Shown piece by piece: positions 12,741 to 19,109 of a DNA stretch of 32,184 bases. The notes under the pieces were generated by a model, which was not told where the DNA came from, searched no databases, and worked only from the letters and a program-made list of their open reading frames with translations. The first letter of the stretch is position 1. Each line of letters starts with the position of its first letter. Where the stretch lies: contig NZ_BBJP01000015.1 of NCBI RefSeq assembly GCF_000739595.1, positions 1 to 32,184 of the forward strand, in the 5' to 3' direction. The DNA is from Halorubrum halophilum (GTDB lineage: Archaea > Halobacteriota > Halobacteria > Halobacteriales > Haloferacaceae). Position numbers and translations under genes: made by a program.

Positions 12741-13121
12741 TTACGGGACGTGCTCGGAGATCCACGCCGCGAGGTCGTCGCCGGGAACGAATCCCTCCGC
12801 GCGGCGCGCGACCGGCTCGCCGTCGACGAACAGCACGAACAGCGGGACACTCCGCACGTCGAACCGCTCGACGAGCGGCGGATCGTCGCGGGGATTCACG
12901 AGCGCGGCCGCGATGTCGAGCTCGCGGGCGACGTTGCCGAGGACGGGCTCCATGCTCGCGCAGAGGCCGCAGCCGTCCGTGTAGAACTCGACGAGGGCGG
13001 CGTTCGCGTCGGCGACGAACGCGTCGAGCGCGTCTGCGTCCTCGAGAGATACCGGTCGTCGGACGTCCGCGGAGGCGCCGTCAGCGGACTCGGAGTTCTC
13101 TGATCCGGTCTTGGGTTTCAT
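12741..13121 (-). CDS. Thioredoxin-family protein (CGLC)
   Basis: A 126-residue cytoplasmic thioredoxin fold with the active site YTDGCGLC (Cys51, Cys54) and the cis-proline segment RSVPLFVLF. The active site is CGLC rather than the common CGPC, which alters the expected redox potential. A serine/acid-rich extension of about 20 residues precedes the fold. The ATG at 13121 was chosen over a GTG at 13127 because the TATA box at 13143-13150 places the transcript start at about 13120. The partner is not evident; the helicase-nuclease operon upstream on the same strand is 48 bases away but has a promoter between. Confidence 0.88.
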   Translation of the reverse strand: MKPKTGSENSESADGASADVRRPVSLEDADALDAFVADANAALVEFYTDGCGLCASMEPVLGNVARELDIAAALVNPRDDPPLVERFDVRSVPLFVLFVDGEPVARRAEGFVPGDDLAAWISEHVP

Positions 13122-13142
13122 GCACACTATTGTCGTCGAACA

Positions 13143-13150
13143 CTTATAAA
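13143..13150 (-). promoter_or_regulatory. TATA box of the thioredoxin gene
   Basis: TTTATAAG on the minus strand is centred about 26 nt before the ATG at 13121. It is the clearest TATA box in the window. Confidence 0.65.
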
Positions 13151-13175
13151 CATCGCGCCAGGACCGGGAGGGACT

Positions 13176-16100
13176 TCACTTTTCGAGAAGCCGCCGCAGC
13201 CGTCGGTGGACGATGTCGGCCGGCCACGAGGCCGTCGTCGTCTCGCGTGCGACGCCGAACGTCTCGACGGTCCGGCGGACCGGCGCGTCGGACGCGCCGC
13301 GCTGCTCCGCGAGGAACGCGTACGCGGCTATCTGCAGCTCGTACCGCCGTCGCGTCTCGGGAGTCGGCTCGGCCAAGGCGATCTTCACGTCGGTCACGAA
13401 TCGCTCCCCGTCCGGATACTCGGCGACGAAGTCCGCCCGCCCGTGGATCTCGACCTCGAGATCGCCGACCTCGGCCAGCCCGTCCAGCGGGCGTTCGACG
13501 CCGATCTCGGTCGCCGGATCCGCGATCCGACCCCACAGGTCCGAGTCGAGGAAGTCGTCGAGGACAGTCTCGAAGAACGCGAACATCCCGTCGCGCTCGG
13601 CCTCGTCGACGGGTTTCGAAAGCGCATTCACGGCGTCGTCGAAGGCGGCGCGTACGTCCGGTCCCGTCGTCCGGATCGCCCGTTCGTCAACGCCGCGAAC
13701 GACCAGCTCCGTGAGCGCGTCGTGGAGACACGTCCCCACCTCCTCGGGACCGAGCCGGTCGAATCGCAGCGGGAGATTCCCGGAGACCTCGTTCGTCGCC
13801 GTGTGTAACGGCTCGCCCAACAGGTGGGCGAGCGCGTATCGATCCGCGTCCTCCGTCAGCGGGTACATCGTGCTGGGGCTCAGGAACCGGGGGACCCACG
13901 AGTTGAGCCGGTCGCGCCGTGTCGGAGAGGCGGCGACGCGATCGCTTCCGGTTCGAGGCGTCGGGGCGTCGCGTCCGGCGAACAGATCCACGTCGTTGAC
14001 GCCGATCTCGATCGGGTCTCGATTCGGGTCTCGGTTCGAGCCCGCGTCGAGCCGCAACTCGTAGGAGTCGGTGCCGTCGCGTGAGAACGCCAGCCCGTCG
14101 CGGACCGCGTCAAGCCACCGGTCCCGACACTGATCCCCTCCGGCGTCCGAGCGAGGCAGGGGGACGACGAGGTGGTCCCGGGCCCGCGTCAGCGCCACGT
14201 ACAGCAGGCGCCACGCCTCGGCGCGCTCGTTTTCGGCCACGCGGCGGAGACGATCGGGACCGACGAGCGTGTTCGGGTCCACGGAGTCGGGCGGGGAGCC
14301 GGGCGCGGAATCGTCCGGAGAGCCCCGCCAGCGAGCCGTCGCCCAGCGGAGCCCGGCGTCGCGGCCCCACCCGTCTCCGGCGCCGTACAGCCCGCCGTCG
14401 AACGGGGGGACGGTGACGTCTTCGGGCACCTCCGTGTTCGTCGGCGGGGCGAGCCCCGCGATCTCCCCCTGCGCGACGAACCGACGAGCGTGGGGGCCGC
14501 GCGACCAGATATCGAATCCGGGGTCGGCGACGACGACCACGTCGTCCTGATCCCCTTTGGCGCGGTGAACCGTGCGGAACTCGACGTCGTAGGCGGCGCC
14601 GGCCGCGCTCGGCTGCGTCGGGCCGGCACCGGGGTCCTCACGGAACGGCTCCGCGAGGTCGATCAGCTCCGAGGGGGAGTAGTGACCGTCTCCCTCCCAT
14701 TCGGAGAGCGTCTCGACGAGCGCGTCGAGGTTGGCGACTCGCTGGTCCGGATCGGTGTCGTCGACGCACCCGTTCGGGTCGGCCCGCAGCGCGAGCGCCT
14801 CGATCACGTCCTCGACGTAGACGCTCGCCGGAGTCCGGCCGAAAGCGTCCCTCCGGTCGCGGAGCCGGACGACCCCTCGGAGGACCCGTCGCTGCGCTTC
14901 CGTGAGGGTATCCGGGTCGTCGTTGAGCACCCGGTCGAGATCCCACGAGTGCGCCTCGAACGGGGACGGGTCGGAGGAGGCCGCATCGAACGCGTCCCGC
15001 AGCGGGGACTCGGTGAGGAGGTCAGCGGTACGTTCCGGTGATCCCGGCGCGATCAGCCACTCGCAGACGGCGAGGACCGTCTCGACGGCGGGGGAATCGA
15101 ACAGCGCGTCGGTCGCGGTGCGGACGCGAAGTCCCTCGGCGGCGAACGCCGCCTCGTACTCGGGCATCCGCGTCCCGCGGCGGAACAGCACCGTGACGCC
15201 GAGCGGGTCGCCGTCTGCGTCGCGGAAGGTCCCGTCCGCGAGCCCCCGCGAGACGAGCGTCGCGAGCACGTTCGCCTCGCCGCCCTCTCCGTCGGGATTC
15301 GCCCACGTCGCGGATCCGGGGCGGCCGACGCCGGCGAACGCCGAGACGTGGACGGCGGGACCGTCGTCGTCTTCGTCGTTCTCGCCGCCGGTGACGCCCT
15401 CGCGGGCCGCGTCCAATCGCGGGTACGATGCGTCGAGGTCTCCCAGATCCCCGCGGGCCGGATCGTCGAACACCCGCTCGGCGATCGCGTTGATCCCCGC
15501 GGCGACGTCGGGCACGCACCGGTAGGTGGTGGTCGCCGTTCGGTTCTCGTGAGTGTCCCAGTCCACGCCGAGATACGTCCCCTCGGTCGTCGCGGCGGCG
15601 AACCACCGCGGGTCGGCGTGTCGCCACAGATAGATGCCCTGTAGCACGTCGCCGCAGGCGAAGACGCGCGACTCGATCGTCACGACGTGCGAGAGCGCGG
15701 CGTGCTGGACGGCAGACACGTCCTGCGCCTCGTCGATGACCAGACTCCGGATCCGTGACCGGTACGTTCGGCGGATCCGGTCGCAGTGCGAGTCGTCGAC
15801 CGAGCGGAGCGGCTCCGGCAGGTCCGGTCGCTCGCTCGATCCGTCGAAGTACGCGTCCACGAGGTACGCGACGTCGGTGTGCGAGACCGCGCCGTACTCG
15901 CGGACGGCGTCTCGGTATCGGGCGCGGTACGCCGAGAGAACGGCACAGAAGTCGTCGATCCGCGTCTCCCACGCGTCGTACAGTTCGCGGTCGGCGTCGA
16001 GCAGGCGCGCTCGGTCCGACCCGGTCACCGCCTCGCGGACGCGGTCGGCGGCGCCGCCGTCGGGTTCGCGGTCATCGATTTCCTCGCCCTCGACGAACCG

Positions 16101-16829
16101 CTCGACCGACCGCGCGATGGCGTCGAACGAGTCGGGTTTCCCGTCCGGATATACCGAGTCGCGCGTCTTCGTGAGCTCCGACCGGAACGCCTCGGTCGAG
16201 AGGCGTCGATCGCGGCAGTACGTCAGCGCGTCCGCCAGCATCTCGTCGACGCCGTCGTCGTACTCGCCGTCGGGGTACGCGGCCTCGAGGTCGCGGAGCC
16301 GACGGGCGAGCTCCGAGTCGCCGCGGAGCGACTCGTAGCAGTCGCGGTGGACCCGTTTCAGGAGCGCGTCGTTCCCGACCGACGGCGTCTCGTCGAAGCC
16401 GACGTCGCCCGCGAACTCTCGGAAGATCCCGCGCAAGAACCCGTCGATGGTACCCGCGTAGGGCGCCTGTCGCACGCGCTGCTGGAGGTACCGAAGCTCC
16501 GCCTCGGAGACATCGGCCGCGACGGGGACGAGGCCGCCCTCGACGATCGCCCGCAACCGGTCGCAGATCGCCGGGACGATCTCGGCCGCCTCGTCGCGGT
16601 TGAACGAGACGACCGCGACGTGCTGCTCCGGGGTCGGGTCCCCGGCCGCGTATCGGCGGAGGACGTCCTCGGCGGCGATGTGGTGGGCGACGACCGACTT
16701 GCCGGCGCCCGGGACGCAGTCGAGGGTGAACAGCCCGGCGTCGGCCGCGAAGTACGCGTCCCTGATCGCCCGCTGTGCGCCTCGTAGCCTGAGGGGGTCG
16801 GCGTCGCCGTCGGCGCCGTCGTCAGTCAT
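13176..16829 (-). CDS. AddA/RecB-like SF1 helicase fused to a PD-(D/E)XK nuclease
   Basis: A 1217-residue protein with all UvrD-type helicase motifs in order: Walker A VPGAGKS (39-45), DEAQD (motif II), VFACGDVLQGIYLWR (III), TTTYRC (IV), FRTVHRAKGDQDDVVVV (V) and RLLYVALTRARDHLVV (VI). The last 200 residues form a RecB/Cas4-type nuclease: GTCLHDAL, GRADFV, VTDVKIAL (the DxK motif) and LQIAAYAF (Q-Y motif). This is the A-subunit layout of AddAB/RecBCD enzymes that unwind and resect double-strand ends. The ATG at 16829 begins the recognisable protein; the longer frame shadows the upstream gene. Its start overlaps the preceding stop by 8 bases. Last gene of a three-gene operon. Confidence 0.92.
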   Translation of the reverse strand: MTDDGADGDADPLRLRGAQRAIRDAYFAADAGLFTLDCVPGAGKSVVAHHIAAEDVLRRYAAGDPTPEQHVAVVSFNRDEAAEIVPAICDRLRAIVEGGLVPVAADVSEAELRYLQQRVRQAPYAGTIDGFLRGIFREFAGDVGFDETPSVGNDALLKRVHRDCYESLRGDSELARRLRDLEAAYPDGEYDDGVDEMLADALTYCRDRRLSTEAFRSELTKTRDSVYPDGKPDSFDAIARSVERFVEGEEIDDREPDGGAADRVREAVTGSDRARLLDADRELYDAWETRIDDFCAVLSAYRARYRDAVREYGAVSHTDVAYLVDAYFDGSSERPDLPEPLRSVDDSHCDRIRRTYRSRIRSLVIDEAQDVSAVQHAALSHVVTIESRVFACGDVLQGIYLWRHADPRWFAAATTEGTYLGVDWDTHENRTATTTYRCVPDVAAGINAIAERVFDDPARGDLGDLDASYPRLDAAREGVTGGENDEDDDGPAVHVSAFAGVGRPGSATWANPDGEGGEANVLATLVSRGLADGTFRDADGDPLGVTVLFRRGTRMPEYEAAFAAEGLRVRTATDALFDSPAVETVLAVCEWLIAPGSPERTADLLTESPLRDAFDAASSDPSPFEAHSWDLDRVLNDDPDTLTEAQRRVLRGVVRLRDRRDAFGRTPASVYVEDVIEALALRADPNGCVDDTDPDQRVANLDALVETLSEWEGDGHYSPSELIDLAEPFREDPGAGPTQPSAAGAAYDVEFRTVHRAKGDQDDVVVVADPGFDIWSRGPHARRFVAQGEIAGLAPPTNTEVPEDVTVPPFDGGLYGAGDGWGRDAGLRWATARWRGSPDDSAPGSPPDSVDPNTLVGPDRLRRVAENERAEAWRLLYVALTRARDHLVVPLPRSDAGGDQCRDRWLDAVRDGLAFSRDGTDSYELRLDAGSNRDPNRDPIEIGVNDVDLFAGRDAPTPRTGSDRVAASPTRRDRLNSWVPRFLSPSTMYPLTEDADRYALAHLLGEPLHTATNEVSGNLPLRFDRLGPEEVGTCLHDALTELVVRGVDERAIRTTGPDVRAAFDDAVNALSKPVDEAERDGMFAFFETVLDDFLDSDLWGRIADPATEIGVERPLDGLAEVGDLEVEIHGRADFVAEYPDGERFVTDVKIALAEPTPETRRRYELQIAAYAFLAEQRGASDAPVRRTVETFGVARETTTASWPADIVHRRLRRLLEK

Positions 16830-18099
16830 CGTCTCCCTCCGGTCTCTCATCCCTCTCCGCGGACTCTCCACCGACGATCTCCCGCAGCGCCGGCGGAAGC
16901 TCCCGTTCCGTCCCGACCAACCGCCGCCGAGACGATTCGGATATCCGCCGCGTCTCGATGTGGTCGAGCAAGGGGGAGCGAGCCACGTCGTCGCCGGCGG
17001 GGGTCCGCGTGTGTCGGGTGACGACGACGCATCGCTCCGCCACACGGAGCGTGTCCACGAACTGGTCGCGGTCGCGGCCGCCGACCCACGCCGGCTGCGG
17101 CGCGAGCGCTTCGGACGATCCCTCTCCCCGGAGGACCGCCTCCTGGAACTCCGGCGGCAACACGGACTGAGACGGGTTCGGCCACTCCTCGGCGGTCAGC
17201 CCGACGGCGATCACGTACGGTACCTCGAGCGTCCAGACGTCGTTCGCCTCGAAGACGTCGAGCGCGCGGGCGTTCGAGTGCTCCCGACGACCCGGGCGCT
17301 GCGTGGCGATCACGCCGGCGAGGTCGGCGACATCGCTCCACGAGCGCTCCAGCGTCCCTTCTTCGAGGCGGTCCGCGAACTTGTGCCGTAGCTGCCGGAC
17401 GAGGGTGCGAACCCGCACGACTGCACGCGCGTCGGTCTCGGTGTCGAGCAGCGCCGGCGAGTCAGCGGCCTTCGTCTCCGGGAGCCCACGGTCGGCGTAC
17501 CCCTCGACGGTCTCGCCGAGGAGCGCGGCGACCGACGCCGGCTCCGGCGCCGGCGCGGCGTCGAGCCACTCGAGGAACCGCCGGAACCGGTCGTCGACGC
17601 CGTCGGTCGATTCGATCACCTCGATCCACTCGGGGACCGATCGGGAGGCGGCCGGGAGGGCCTCGCGGGCTCGGTGTACCGCCCCGGGCTCGATGGGCCA
17701 CTCCGTCGACTGCGGATCAGCGCCGTGGGAAGTCGCCGGCGACCACCGGAGTTCGAGCGGCCGCAGCAGCGTCTCGCGGTCCGCGGCCTCTCCGGCCAGC
17801 GCCTCACACACCGACTCGACGAGGGCGTACGGGCGGGTTCGGGTGACGCGGAGCTGCGTCCAGAACACGGGTGCGATCCCGTACTGGAGCGCCGCCCGGA
17901 ACAGCGGCTCCTCGTACGGGTCGAGGTCGCGGACCGCGACGGCGAGGTCTCGGACCGGAACACCTGCCTCTCGGAGCGCGGCCGCGACCGCCATCGCGCC
18001 GCGCGCCTCGTCTCGGCGCGTCGGGGACGCGATCTCGATCACCGGGGCGTCGGGCGCGTCGATCGGCGCCGCGAGCGCGAGCCGGTCGGAACCGGTCAT
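16822..18099 (-). CDS. AddB/RecC-like protein, C-terminal part of a split subunit
   Basis: A 425-residue protein resembling the second helicase-like half of AddB/RecC. Evidence is the RRDEARGAMAVAAALREAG helix followed by VRDLAVAVRDLDPYEE, GIAPVFW, a long helical insert, and a late EVPYVIAVGLTAEEWPNP strand-loop (AddB: viGl..g.fP), then RSPLLDHIE. It has no Walker A and no nuclease motif. The ATG at 18099 overlaps the preceding TGA as ATGA, and its own TGA overlaps the helicase ATG, so the three genes are tightly coupled. Function inferred: non-catalytic or end-processing partner of the helicase-nuclease. Similarity was judged by eye only. Confidence 0.68.
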   Translation of the reverse strand: MTGSDRLALAAPIDAPDAPVIEIASPTRRDEARGAMAVAAALREAGVPVRDLAVAVRDLDPYEEPLFRAALQYGIAPVFWTQLRVTRTRPYALVESVCEALAGEAADRETLLRPLELRWSPATSHGADPQSTEWPIEPGAVHRAREALPAASRSVPEWIEVIESTDGVDDRFRRFLEWLDAAPAPEPASVAALLGETVEGYADRGLPETKAADSPALLDTETDARAVVRVRTLVRQLRHKFADRLEEGTLERSWSDVADLAGVIATQRPGRREHSNARALDVFEANDVWTLEVPYVIAVGLTAEEWPNPSQSVLPPEFQEAVLRGEGSSEALAPQPAWVGGRDRDQFVDTLRVAERCVVVTRHTRTPAGDDVARSPLLDHIETRRISESSRRRLVGTERELPPALREIVGGESAERDERPEGDDD

Positions 18100-18914
18100 T
18101 CGAACGCCTCCGTTCCGGGGTCGGCGACGGCGAGGAGGTCGGGGATCCGGCGCCGAAGGAACTCCCCGCTTCCCTCTCGAAAGTGGACGTGGACCTCGAC
18201 GGGCGTGGCGGCCAGCAGCGCGTTGACGAGATCGGTGTGCGGCGCCGACAGACTGGAGAGCCCGAGGAGCGTGAGCCGTTCGATATTCGGGTACGTATCC
18301 GCCCACACCGACCCGTCCGTCGCCGTGATCGACCGCGTCGCGCGGCGCACCAGCGCCGTCTCGGAGACGGCCTTCGCGGTCTGGTTCCGCAGTTCGCGTT
18401 CGATCCCGAATCCGGCGTCAAGGAGCGCCGCTGCCTCGTGGTCGATCGGAGCGTCGATCCCGCCGGCCGTCTCGGTCCAGGCCGCGATCCGCTCCGGGTG
18501 GAAGTTCGTGATCGCCTCCACTTCGGTTCGGATCTGCTCGATGTGCCGCGGATCGCGCGACGCGGTGCCCGTCGGAAGGGGGAGGTTCGTCGAGTCGTCA
18601 GCCGCTGCAGCGTCGAGGACCGACCGGATCAGCGAGAGGCGATCGACGCGGTCCACGGCCGCAGTCGATCGCTCCGCGGCCTCCAACACGCGGACGCAGA
18701 TCCCGACCGGGTCCTCGAAGCGGAAGGCGTCCTTCGGCAGTCGGGCCTCTCGGAGCCTGCGCTGGACGTTGCGTTGATGGAGTTCGACCGGGGAGACGAC
18801 GAGTTCGTTCGGGCGCGAGCGGGTGCGAGCCCGCTCGAACAGCCGCCTTTCGTCGCCGACGTGAAGCGTCAGCCGATCCGGGATCCCGTCGTCGTGTGTG
18901 CGCGTTCCTTCCAT
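18096..18914 (-). CDS. AddB/RecC-like protein, N-terminal part of a split subunit
   Basis: A 272-residue protein. The start LTLHVGDERRLFERA, the LVVSPVELHQRNVQRRL segment and VDRLSLIRSVL resemble the N-terminal helicase-like domain of AddB. The late RLTLLGLSSLSAPHTDLVNA matches the AddB 'vyldGf.dl...e..lv..l' motif. The usual P-loop of active AddA-type motors is absent. The frame is open back to 19031 (GTG), but the extra 39 residues are alanine/threonine-rich and no TATA box distinguishes the starts, so the ATG at 18914 is a choice with some doubt. First gene of the helicase-nuclease operon, divergent from phoU. Confidence 0.65.
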   Translation of the reverse strand: MEGTRTHDDGIPDRLTLHVGDERRLFERARTRSRPNELVVSPVELHQRNVQRRLREARLPKDAFRFEDPVGICVRVLEAAERSTAAVDRVDRLSLIRSVLDAAAADDSTNLPLPTGTASRDPRHIEQIRTEVEAITNFHPERIAAWTETAGGIDAPIDHEAAALLDAGFGIERELRNQTAKAVSETALVRRATRSITATDGSVWADTYPNIERLTLLGLSSLSAPHTDLVNALLAATPVEVHVHFREGSGEFLRRRIPDLLAVADPGTEAFE

Positions 18915-19109
18915 TGCTTGGAGTCGACCGCTCGTCAGCCCGGACGCTACGGCGTCCACCGCCGAACCGTTGTCGGTCGCTGCCGCCGACACAGTGAGAA
19001 GCGATCGCTTGGTGGAAAGCAGCGACCGCACCGATGACTCAATCGCTGGCGATTCGGTCGGTTTCGGCGGGGAGTTGGGGCGGTGCGTCGCCGTTCGATC
19101 GGCGACGTG

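What the first reader, a model, noticed from the sequence alone, without database searches (positions are those of the whole stretch)
13176..18914. AddAB/RecBC-like helicase-nuclease operon in an archaeon, with the B subunit split into two genes
Seen: three overlapping minus-strand genes (4-base and 8-base overlaps). The last is a complete SF1 helicase with a C-terminal PD-(D/E)XK nuclease. The first two look like the N-terminal and C-terminal halves of AddB/RecC, without P-loop or nuclease. Known: AddAB and RecBCD are bacterial end-resection machines, whereas archaea mainly use Mre11-Rad50 with HerA-NurA. Inference: a haloarchaeal three-protein resection or defence enzyme with one nuclease and an inactive partner, about 700 residues in two chains versus about 1150 in bacterial AddB.
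Basis: partly seen in the sequence, partly recalled or inferred. Interest (0 to 1): 0.78.

Follow-up and report, generated by a model that had tools for sequence, protein, structure and literature searches.

The report
Archaeal AddAB-like nuclease, split B subunit
Three adjacent genes of a salt-loving archaeon encode a DNA-unwinding and DNA-cutting machine related to the bacterial break-processing enzymes AddAB and RecBCD, in which the partner subunit has lost its own cutting domain and been divided into two proteins, a form we found only in haloarchaea and found no description of.

Summary
Window 13176-18914 (-) holds three overlapping genes: BN (272 aa), BC (425 aa) and A (1217 aa). A has all SF1 helicase motifs checked and a RecB-type PD-(D/E)XK nuclease. 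BN and BC match no curated family, but together they are one AddB-like protein. In 19 relatives they are fused into one ORF. The fused model (pLDDT 91) matches Bacillus AddB residues 2-718 best of all PDB chains (Z 21). A model of BC itself aligns with AddB ~289-718. Profile comparisons bridge BN and BC to full-length haloarchaeal B proteins that hit AddB by sequence.
Correction: BN and BC are not halves of whole AddB. They are the 1A/1B and 2A/2B parts of its inactive-helicase region; the C-terminal nuclease/Fe-S third is gone. Haloarchaea show a graded series: AddAB with two intact nucleases (mostly plasmid-borne), AddB with a dead nuclease, nuclease-less single-chain B, split B.
All three genes co-occur in 62/391 haloarchaeal genomes, are under purifying selection (dN/dS 0.20-0.42), and were found only in Halobacteria. 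Function is inferred: ATP-driven DNA-end unwinding with one nuclease, RecBC-like. Strand polarity of cutting is the decisive test between recombinational resection and destructive defence.

The parts
18096..18914 (-). BN, 272 aa: equivalent of domains 1A/1B of the inactive-helicase region of AddB (first gene of the operon)
   Evidence: fused with BC in relatives; hhalign to fused B E 2e-60, to full-length haloarchaeal B positions 7-269 E 7e-16
16822..18099 (-). BC, 425 aa: equivalent of domains 2A/2B of the inactive-helicase region of AddB
   Evidence: hhalign to full-length B positions 309-696 E 2e-29; AF2 model aligns with AddB about 289-718, Z 17.3-17.6
13176..16829 (-). A, 1217 aa: AddA/RecB-like SF1 helicase with C-terminal PD-(D/E)XK nuclease
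   Evidence: Pfam UvrD-helicase 4e-12, PDDEXK_1 2e-9; TIGR02785 addA 2e-14 as best NCBIfam hit but far below its cut-off
18096..18099 (-). ATGA stop/start overlap of BN and BC; corresponds to the low-confidence inter-domain linker of the fused relatives
16695..16715 (-). Walker A (VPGAGKS) of A
   Evidence: alignment across 59 A proteins
15717..15737 (-). Walker B / motif II (IDEAQDV) of A
13383..13451 (-). nuclease active-site region of A (HGRAD ... TDVK), D and D-x-K conserved
18528..18539 (-). invariant E126/R129 of BN; same spacing and similar position as AddB E129/R132 (latch salt bridge and Chi-proximal phosphate contact); equivalence inferred
   Evidence: 26/26 split rows E and R; AddB residues from PMC4824097

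Best explanation
The operon encodes a three-chain helicase-nuclease derived from AddAB. Shown by computation: A is an AddA-like motor with one nuclease; BN plus BC rebuild the inactive-helicase (scanner) part of AddB; the AddB nuclease domain is absent. Inferred: BN and BC pair across the former inter-domain linker, bind A, and hold and split DNA ends while A translocates 3'-5' and its single nuclease cuts the unwound DNA. This is an architecture that works like RecBC (one nuclease on the motor subunit, a nuclease-less partner) but appears to have arisen from AddAB. The most likely role is processing or degrading linear DNA ends as an accessory, horizontally mobile system, on top of the cell's own end-processing machinery. 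Whether it favours recombination or destruction is open.
For: BN, BC and A co-occur in all 62 genomes with strong hits. BN+BC are fused in 19 loci read. The fused-B profile matches full-length haloarchaeal B at probability 100, E 3e-46, over positions 7-712 of 1147. BN and BC each match the same profile on their own. That full-length profile hits PDB AddB 3u44_B (2e-11) and RecC (1e-3) by sequence. The fused model's top matches are the five AddB chains, Z 20.2-21.3, 590-610 residues, model 12-680 = AddB 2-718. The model of the window's own BC aligns with AddB ~289-718 at Z about 17.5, tied with UvrD-type helicases. A keeps the helicase and nuclease residues. dN/dS is 0.20-0.42 for all three genes.
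Against: No biochemistry, expression or complex data. A scores far below curated AddA cut-offs (52 vs 708 bits). BN was not folded alone, and the N-terminal fold rests on a fused relative. No co-fold of the three chains was possible. In B. subtilis the AddB nuclease makes the 5'-strand cuts needed for a 3' overhang (PMC4824097), and that nuclease is missing here. Two genomes have A separated from BN-BC by other genes (L126; G392).
Confidence: 0.72

Rival explanations
1. The enzyme is mainly a destroyer of linear foreign DNA (defence or plasmid competition), not a recombinational resector: with only the AddA-type nuclease, which in Bacillus cuts the 3'-ended strand, it would not leave the 3' tail that RadA needs.
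For: AddB nuclease domain absent; strand assignment in B. subtilis AddAB (PMC4824097); patchy occurrence, 62/391 genomes of the class sample and 8 of 39 nearest relatives; plasmid copies; integrase next to A in three relatives; intact-nuclease relatives lie beside DUF499 and, in one, methyltransferase genes.
Against: Neighbours of the split and fused operons are not consistently defence genes. RecB shows that one nuclease can cut both strands (established knowledge). In the window's clade the operon is stably kept at one chromosomal site.
Confidence: 0.4
2. It is a recombination module of a mobile element (serving integration or spread), with regulators and an integrase as the rest of the cassette.
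For: A conserved upstream set (wHTH, DUF7344, zinc-ribbon protein, sometimes HNH) and a downstream phage-type integrase in several relatives.
Against: The window copy and its seven syntenic relatives lack these genes next to the operon; no match in phage or viral collections.
Confidence: 0.12
3. A works alone as a UvrD-nuclease fusion and BN/BC are relics or unrelated passengers.
For: UvrD-Cas4-like fusions are described as stand-alone genes in mesophilic archaea (PMC5704561).
Against: 62/62 co-occurrence, purifying selection on BN and BC, and the AddB fold.
Confidence: 0.05
4. The split is a sequencing error or a pseudogenising frameshift of a single B gene.
For: BN and BC are read in different frames and are one gene in relatives.
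Against: 27 split loci from many genera, 26 with exactly the same 4-bp stop/start overlap; dN/dS well below 1.
Confidence: 0.02

Closest known systems
AddAB (RexAB), Bacillus
   Same: A resembles AddA (helicase plus C-terminal nuclease); BN+BC match AddB 2-718 in fold; gene order B then A
   Different: B has no C-terminal nuclease and no four-cysteine Fe-S site, and is made as two chains; A is far from the curated AddA family
RecBC(D), E. coli
   Same: a single nuclease, on the motor subunit, with an inactive-helicase partner; RecC is among the fold matches (Z about 15)
   Different: RecC keeps a dead nuclease-like domain and is one chain (established knowledge); no RecD-like gene beside the operon
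Haloarchaeal AddAB relatives with intact or dead B nuclease (L113-L125, L221-L225)
   Same: same gene pair and homologous subunits; direct profile link to the window's B
   Different: B is about 1050-1214 aa in one chain and includes the nuclease-type C-terminal domain
AdnAB, mycobacteria
   Same: two-subunit helicase-nuclease with related folds
   Different: its subunits carry motor and nuclease domains (established knowledge); BN/BC have neither

Membership tests
AddAB | AddA: complete SF1A helicase motifs | tested here: met
AddAB | AddA: C-terminal RecB-type PD-(D/E)XK nuclease | tested here: met
AddAB | AddA above the curated NCBIfam cut-off (TIGR02785) | tested here: not met
   52.4 vs 707.65 bits
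AddAB | AddB N-terminal inactive-helicase (1A/1B/2A/2B) fold | tested here: met
AddAB | AddB C-terminal nuclease domain (second nuclease) | tested here: not met
   BN+BC map only to AddB 2-718 and to positions 7-712 of full-length B; no nuclease family hit
AddAB | AddB four-cysteine Fe-S staple | tested here: not met
   BN has one Cys and BC two (sequences); four invariant Cys are present in the intact haloarchaeal AddB set
AddAB | single-chain AddB | tested here: not met
   two ORFs
AddAB | Chi recognition attenuating the nuclease | not testable with these tools
   needs purified enzyme
RecBCD | one nuclease, on the RecB-type motor subunit; nuclease-inactive partner | tested here: met
RecBCD | RecC retains a nuclease-like C-terminal domain | tested here: not met
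   B region ends at the equivalent of AddB 718
RecBCD | RecD second motor in the operon | tested here: not met
   the genes on either side are a thioredoxin-like gene and phoU; the rest of the genome was not searched for RecD
Gabija (GajB) | GajA OLD-type nuclease partner beside the helicase | tested here: not met
   weak GajB hits of A fall on the shared UvrD core; the partner genes are BN/BC and hit no PADLOC model

The most novel reading that the evidence does not exclude
A DNA-end scanner in which the two RecA-like halves of the AddB/RecC 'inactive helicase' are separate proteins, so that the latch contact known within AddB would become a contact between two chains. Haloarchaea would then have evolved a RecBC-like single-nuclease enzyme from AddAB by stepwise loss, possibly reading a short archaeal sequence signal.
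Probability: 0.35. Interest if true: 0.8.

Novelty: new variant of a known kind. Interest (0 to 1): 0.62.

Why it matters
AddAB and RecBCD are described as bacterial end-processing machines, and the papers searched here describe no such enzyme in haloarchaea. The haloarchaeal series from two nucleases, to a dead nuclease, to none, to a split subunit is a natural deletion experiment on AddB. It shows which part of the partner subunit is retained (the scanner) and which is dispensable (its nuclease), and it gives a clear strand-polarity prediction. Haloarchaea lend themselves to genetics, so the role of a further end-processing enzyme in archaea could be tested directly.

Tried and rejected
Pfam, NCBIfam and PADLOC gave no family for BN or BC. 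A profile of the fused B searched against PDB sequences found only designed helical repeats, a chance match on one helical stretch. PDB sequence search with P0002 alone gave nothing useful. Viral and phage collections held no relative. A Rad50-type family (SbcC_Walker_B) search of the own genome was negative and not pursued, since haloarchaeal Rad50 may simply lie outside that model. Integration at tRNA genes was looked for; no consistent tRNA lies beside the operon. Pooled PADLOC/Pfam scans of 123 neighbours showed no consistent defence partner. The number of splits could not be settled: the A tree needs at least two fused/split changes, and re-fusion is as cheap as repeated splitting. A residue-by-residue superposition on AddB was not possible, so the latch equivalence is by position and spacing only.

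Full report
Observation. I call them BN (18914-18096, 272 aa), BC (18099-16822, 425 aa) and A (16829-13176, 1217 aa). BN and BC share the four bases ATGA; BC and A share eight bases. The window is contig C89 of a 3.68 Mb genome; the closest named relatives of this operon are Halorubrum.

The A subunit. A matches UvrD-helicase (4e-12) and PDDEXK_1 (2e-9) in Pfam. Its best NCBIfam hit is AddA, TIGR02785 (2e-14, 52 bits against a cut-off of 708). In an alignment of 59 A proteins the P-loop, DEAQD, GDxxQxIYxWR, YR, TxHxxKG and YVAxTRA motifs are kept with few changes, and so are the nuclease residues (G-x-x-x-H, D, D-x-K, Q-x-x-x-Y).

The B subunits are one AddB-like protein in two pieces. Neither BN nor BC hits a curated family. 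In a sample of 391 Halobacteria genomes, 62 have strong matches to all three proteins and none has a complete strong match to only one or two (G104 holds a BC fragment with stops). In 19 loci read in detail BN and BC are continuous in one ORF, mostly 670-770 aa, next to A. In 27 others they are split, and 26 of these have exactly the 4-bp overlap; in one (L128) the start is ambiguous. The junction falls in a variable linker between two folded domains.

Link to AddB. A second haloarchaeal group has a full-length B (1114-1214 aa) beside A. A profile of 11 of these plus two intact-nuclease relatives (A2) hits Bacillus AddB in the PDB (3u44_B, 2e-11) and RecC (0.001), and single members hit TIGR02773 addB. 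Profile-profile comparison of fused B with A2 gives probability 100, E 3e-46, covering positions 7-712 of 1147. BN alone matches positions 7-269 (7e-16) and BC alone 309-696 (2e-29).

Folds. An AlphaFold2 model of a fused relative (L104, 45-row alignment including P0001 and P0002) has pLDDT 91.4 and pTM 0.86. Its five best PDB matches by Z are all AddB chains (Z 20.2-21.3, 590-610 residues, rmsd 4.8-5.4), aligning model 12-680 with AddB 2-718. The window's own BC (pLDDT 81.5) aligns with AddB about 289-718 at Z 17.3-17.6, tied with the second halves of UvrD-type helicases, as an inactive SF1 domain should be. BN was not folded alone; its assignment rests on the fused model and the profiles.

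What is missing. Nothing in BN or BC corresponds to AddB beyond residue 718, the nuclease and Fe-S domain. The haloarchaeal set shows the steps. B proteins with an intact D-Y-K-T motif and four cysteines occur on haloarchaeal plasmids (44 records matched; five read), with two more in the genome sample (L124, L125). A second group keeps cysteines but has lost the D-x-K motif in B. The fused group ends at the scanner region. The window's group is split. The tree of A proteins is consistent with this order, with dead-nuclease B as one supported clade and fused/split forms together in another. That rooting is on a long branch, and splitting versus re-fusion cannot be counted securely.

Distribution and context. 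A scan of 84,980 genomes with the fused-B profile found 55 loci, all haloarchaeal; the pattern scan can miss distant forms. Fifteen plasmid records carry BC relatives, annotated as hypothetical proteins. In seven syntenic relatives the operon lies, as here, beside a thioredoxin-like gene of a conserved chromosomal block; several genomes without the operon keep that block up to the same gene. In a further group it is preceded by small regulator genes and, in three cases, followed by a gene of phage-integrase type or its same-sized counterpart. No relatives were found in phage or viral collections. dN/dS between the window and seven relatives is 0.23-0.42 for BN, 0.25-0.42 for BC and 0.20-0.32 for A, so all three are maintained.

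Mechanism. Shown: architecture, homology, conservation of catalytic residues in A, absence of the B nuclease. Inferred: BN and BC assemble as the AddB-type scanner, dock on A and split the duplex while A's motor pulls. In B. subtilis AddAB the AddA nuclease cuts the 3'-ended strand and the AddB nuclease the 5'-ended strand, the latter giving the recombinogenic 3' overhang (PMC4824097). An enzyme with only the A nuclease must therefore either let that nuclease reach both strands, as RecB does (established knowledge), or act mainly by destruction. In AddB the latch holds domain 1B (E129) to domain 2A (R629), with R132 contacting DNA next to Chi. BN has an invariant E126/R129 pair with the same spacing (26/26 split rows; 14/18 fused rows), while the position I take for R629 is R in 16/18 fused rows but Q or R in most split ones. 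The equivalence is by position and spacing only. If right, the latch would become a contact between two chains.

Known or new. The AddB/RecC fold and the helicase-nuclease type are known. Among the papers searched I found no description of AddAB in haloarchaea or of a nuclease-less or split B; subscription literature is mostly not covered. Because AddAB's second nuclease was tested and not met, I file this as an AddAB-derived, RecBC-like variant rather than as AddAB.

Noticed in passing
L139, L140, L141, L143, L148, L149, L151 (upstream of BN): Conserved co-oriented small genes before the operon: a winged-helix/MarR-like protein (about 100 aa), a DUF7344 regulator (about 124 aa) and a zinc-ribbon protein (about 175 aa), present in various combinations; in some an HNH-type protein too, and in L140 and L141 (probably L143) a phage-type integrase right after A. 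Looks like a mobile cassette.
   Followed up: partly
L221:1-8198, L222:1-11938: Plasmid-borne haloarchaeal AddAB with an intact B nuclease lies next to DUF499 genes and, in L222, a gene annotated alkaline phosphatase and a DNA methyltransferase, an arrangement reminiscent of phage-defence clusters.
   Followed up: no
G000:C103:43650-44606 and 96 of 97 Halobacteria genomes: Pfam NurA (PF09376) matches nearly all haloarchaea searched, and also the Haloferax volcanii control genome, although a review (PMC7776575) states that HerA and NurA are absent there.
   Followed up: partly
L126 (G237) and G392 contig C2: Here A is separated from BN-BC by about 7 and 15 kb of other genes; G237 also carries two A copies with identical search scores on one contig.
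   Followed up: no
window 12744-13127 (-): A thioredoxin-like gene lies directly downstream of A in the same orientation in this and seven relatives; it is a chromosomal gene also present in genomes without the operon.
   Followed up: yes
window 13130-19037 (+): Long open plus-strand frames opposite the operon (up to 388 aa); probably a by-product of high G+C codon usage rather than genes.
   Followed up: no
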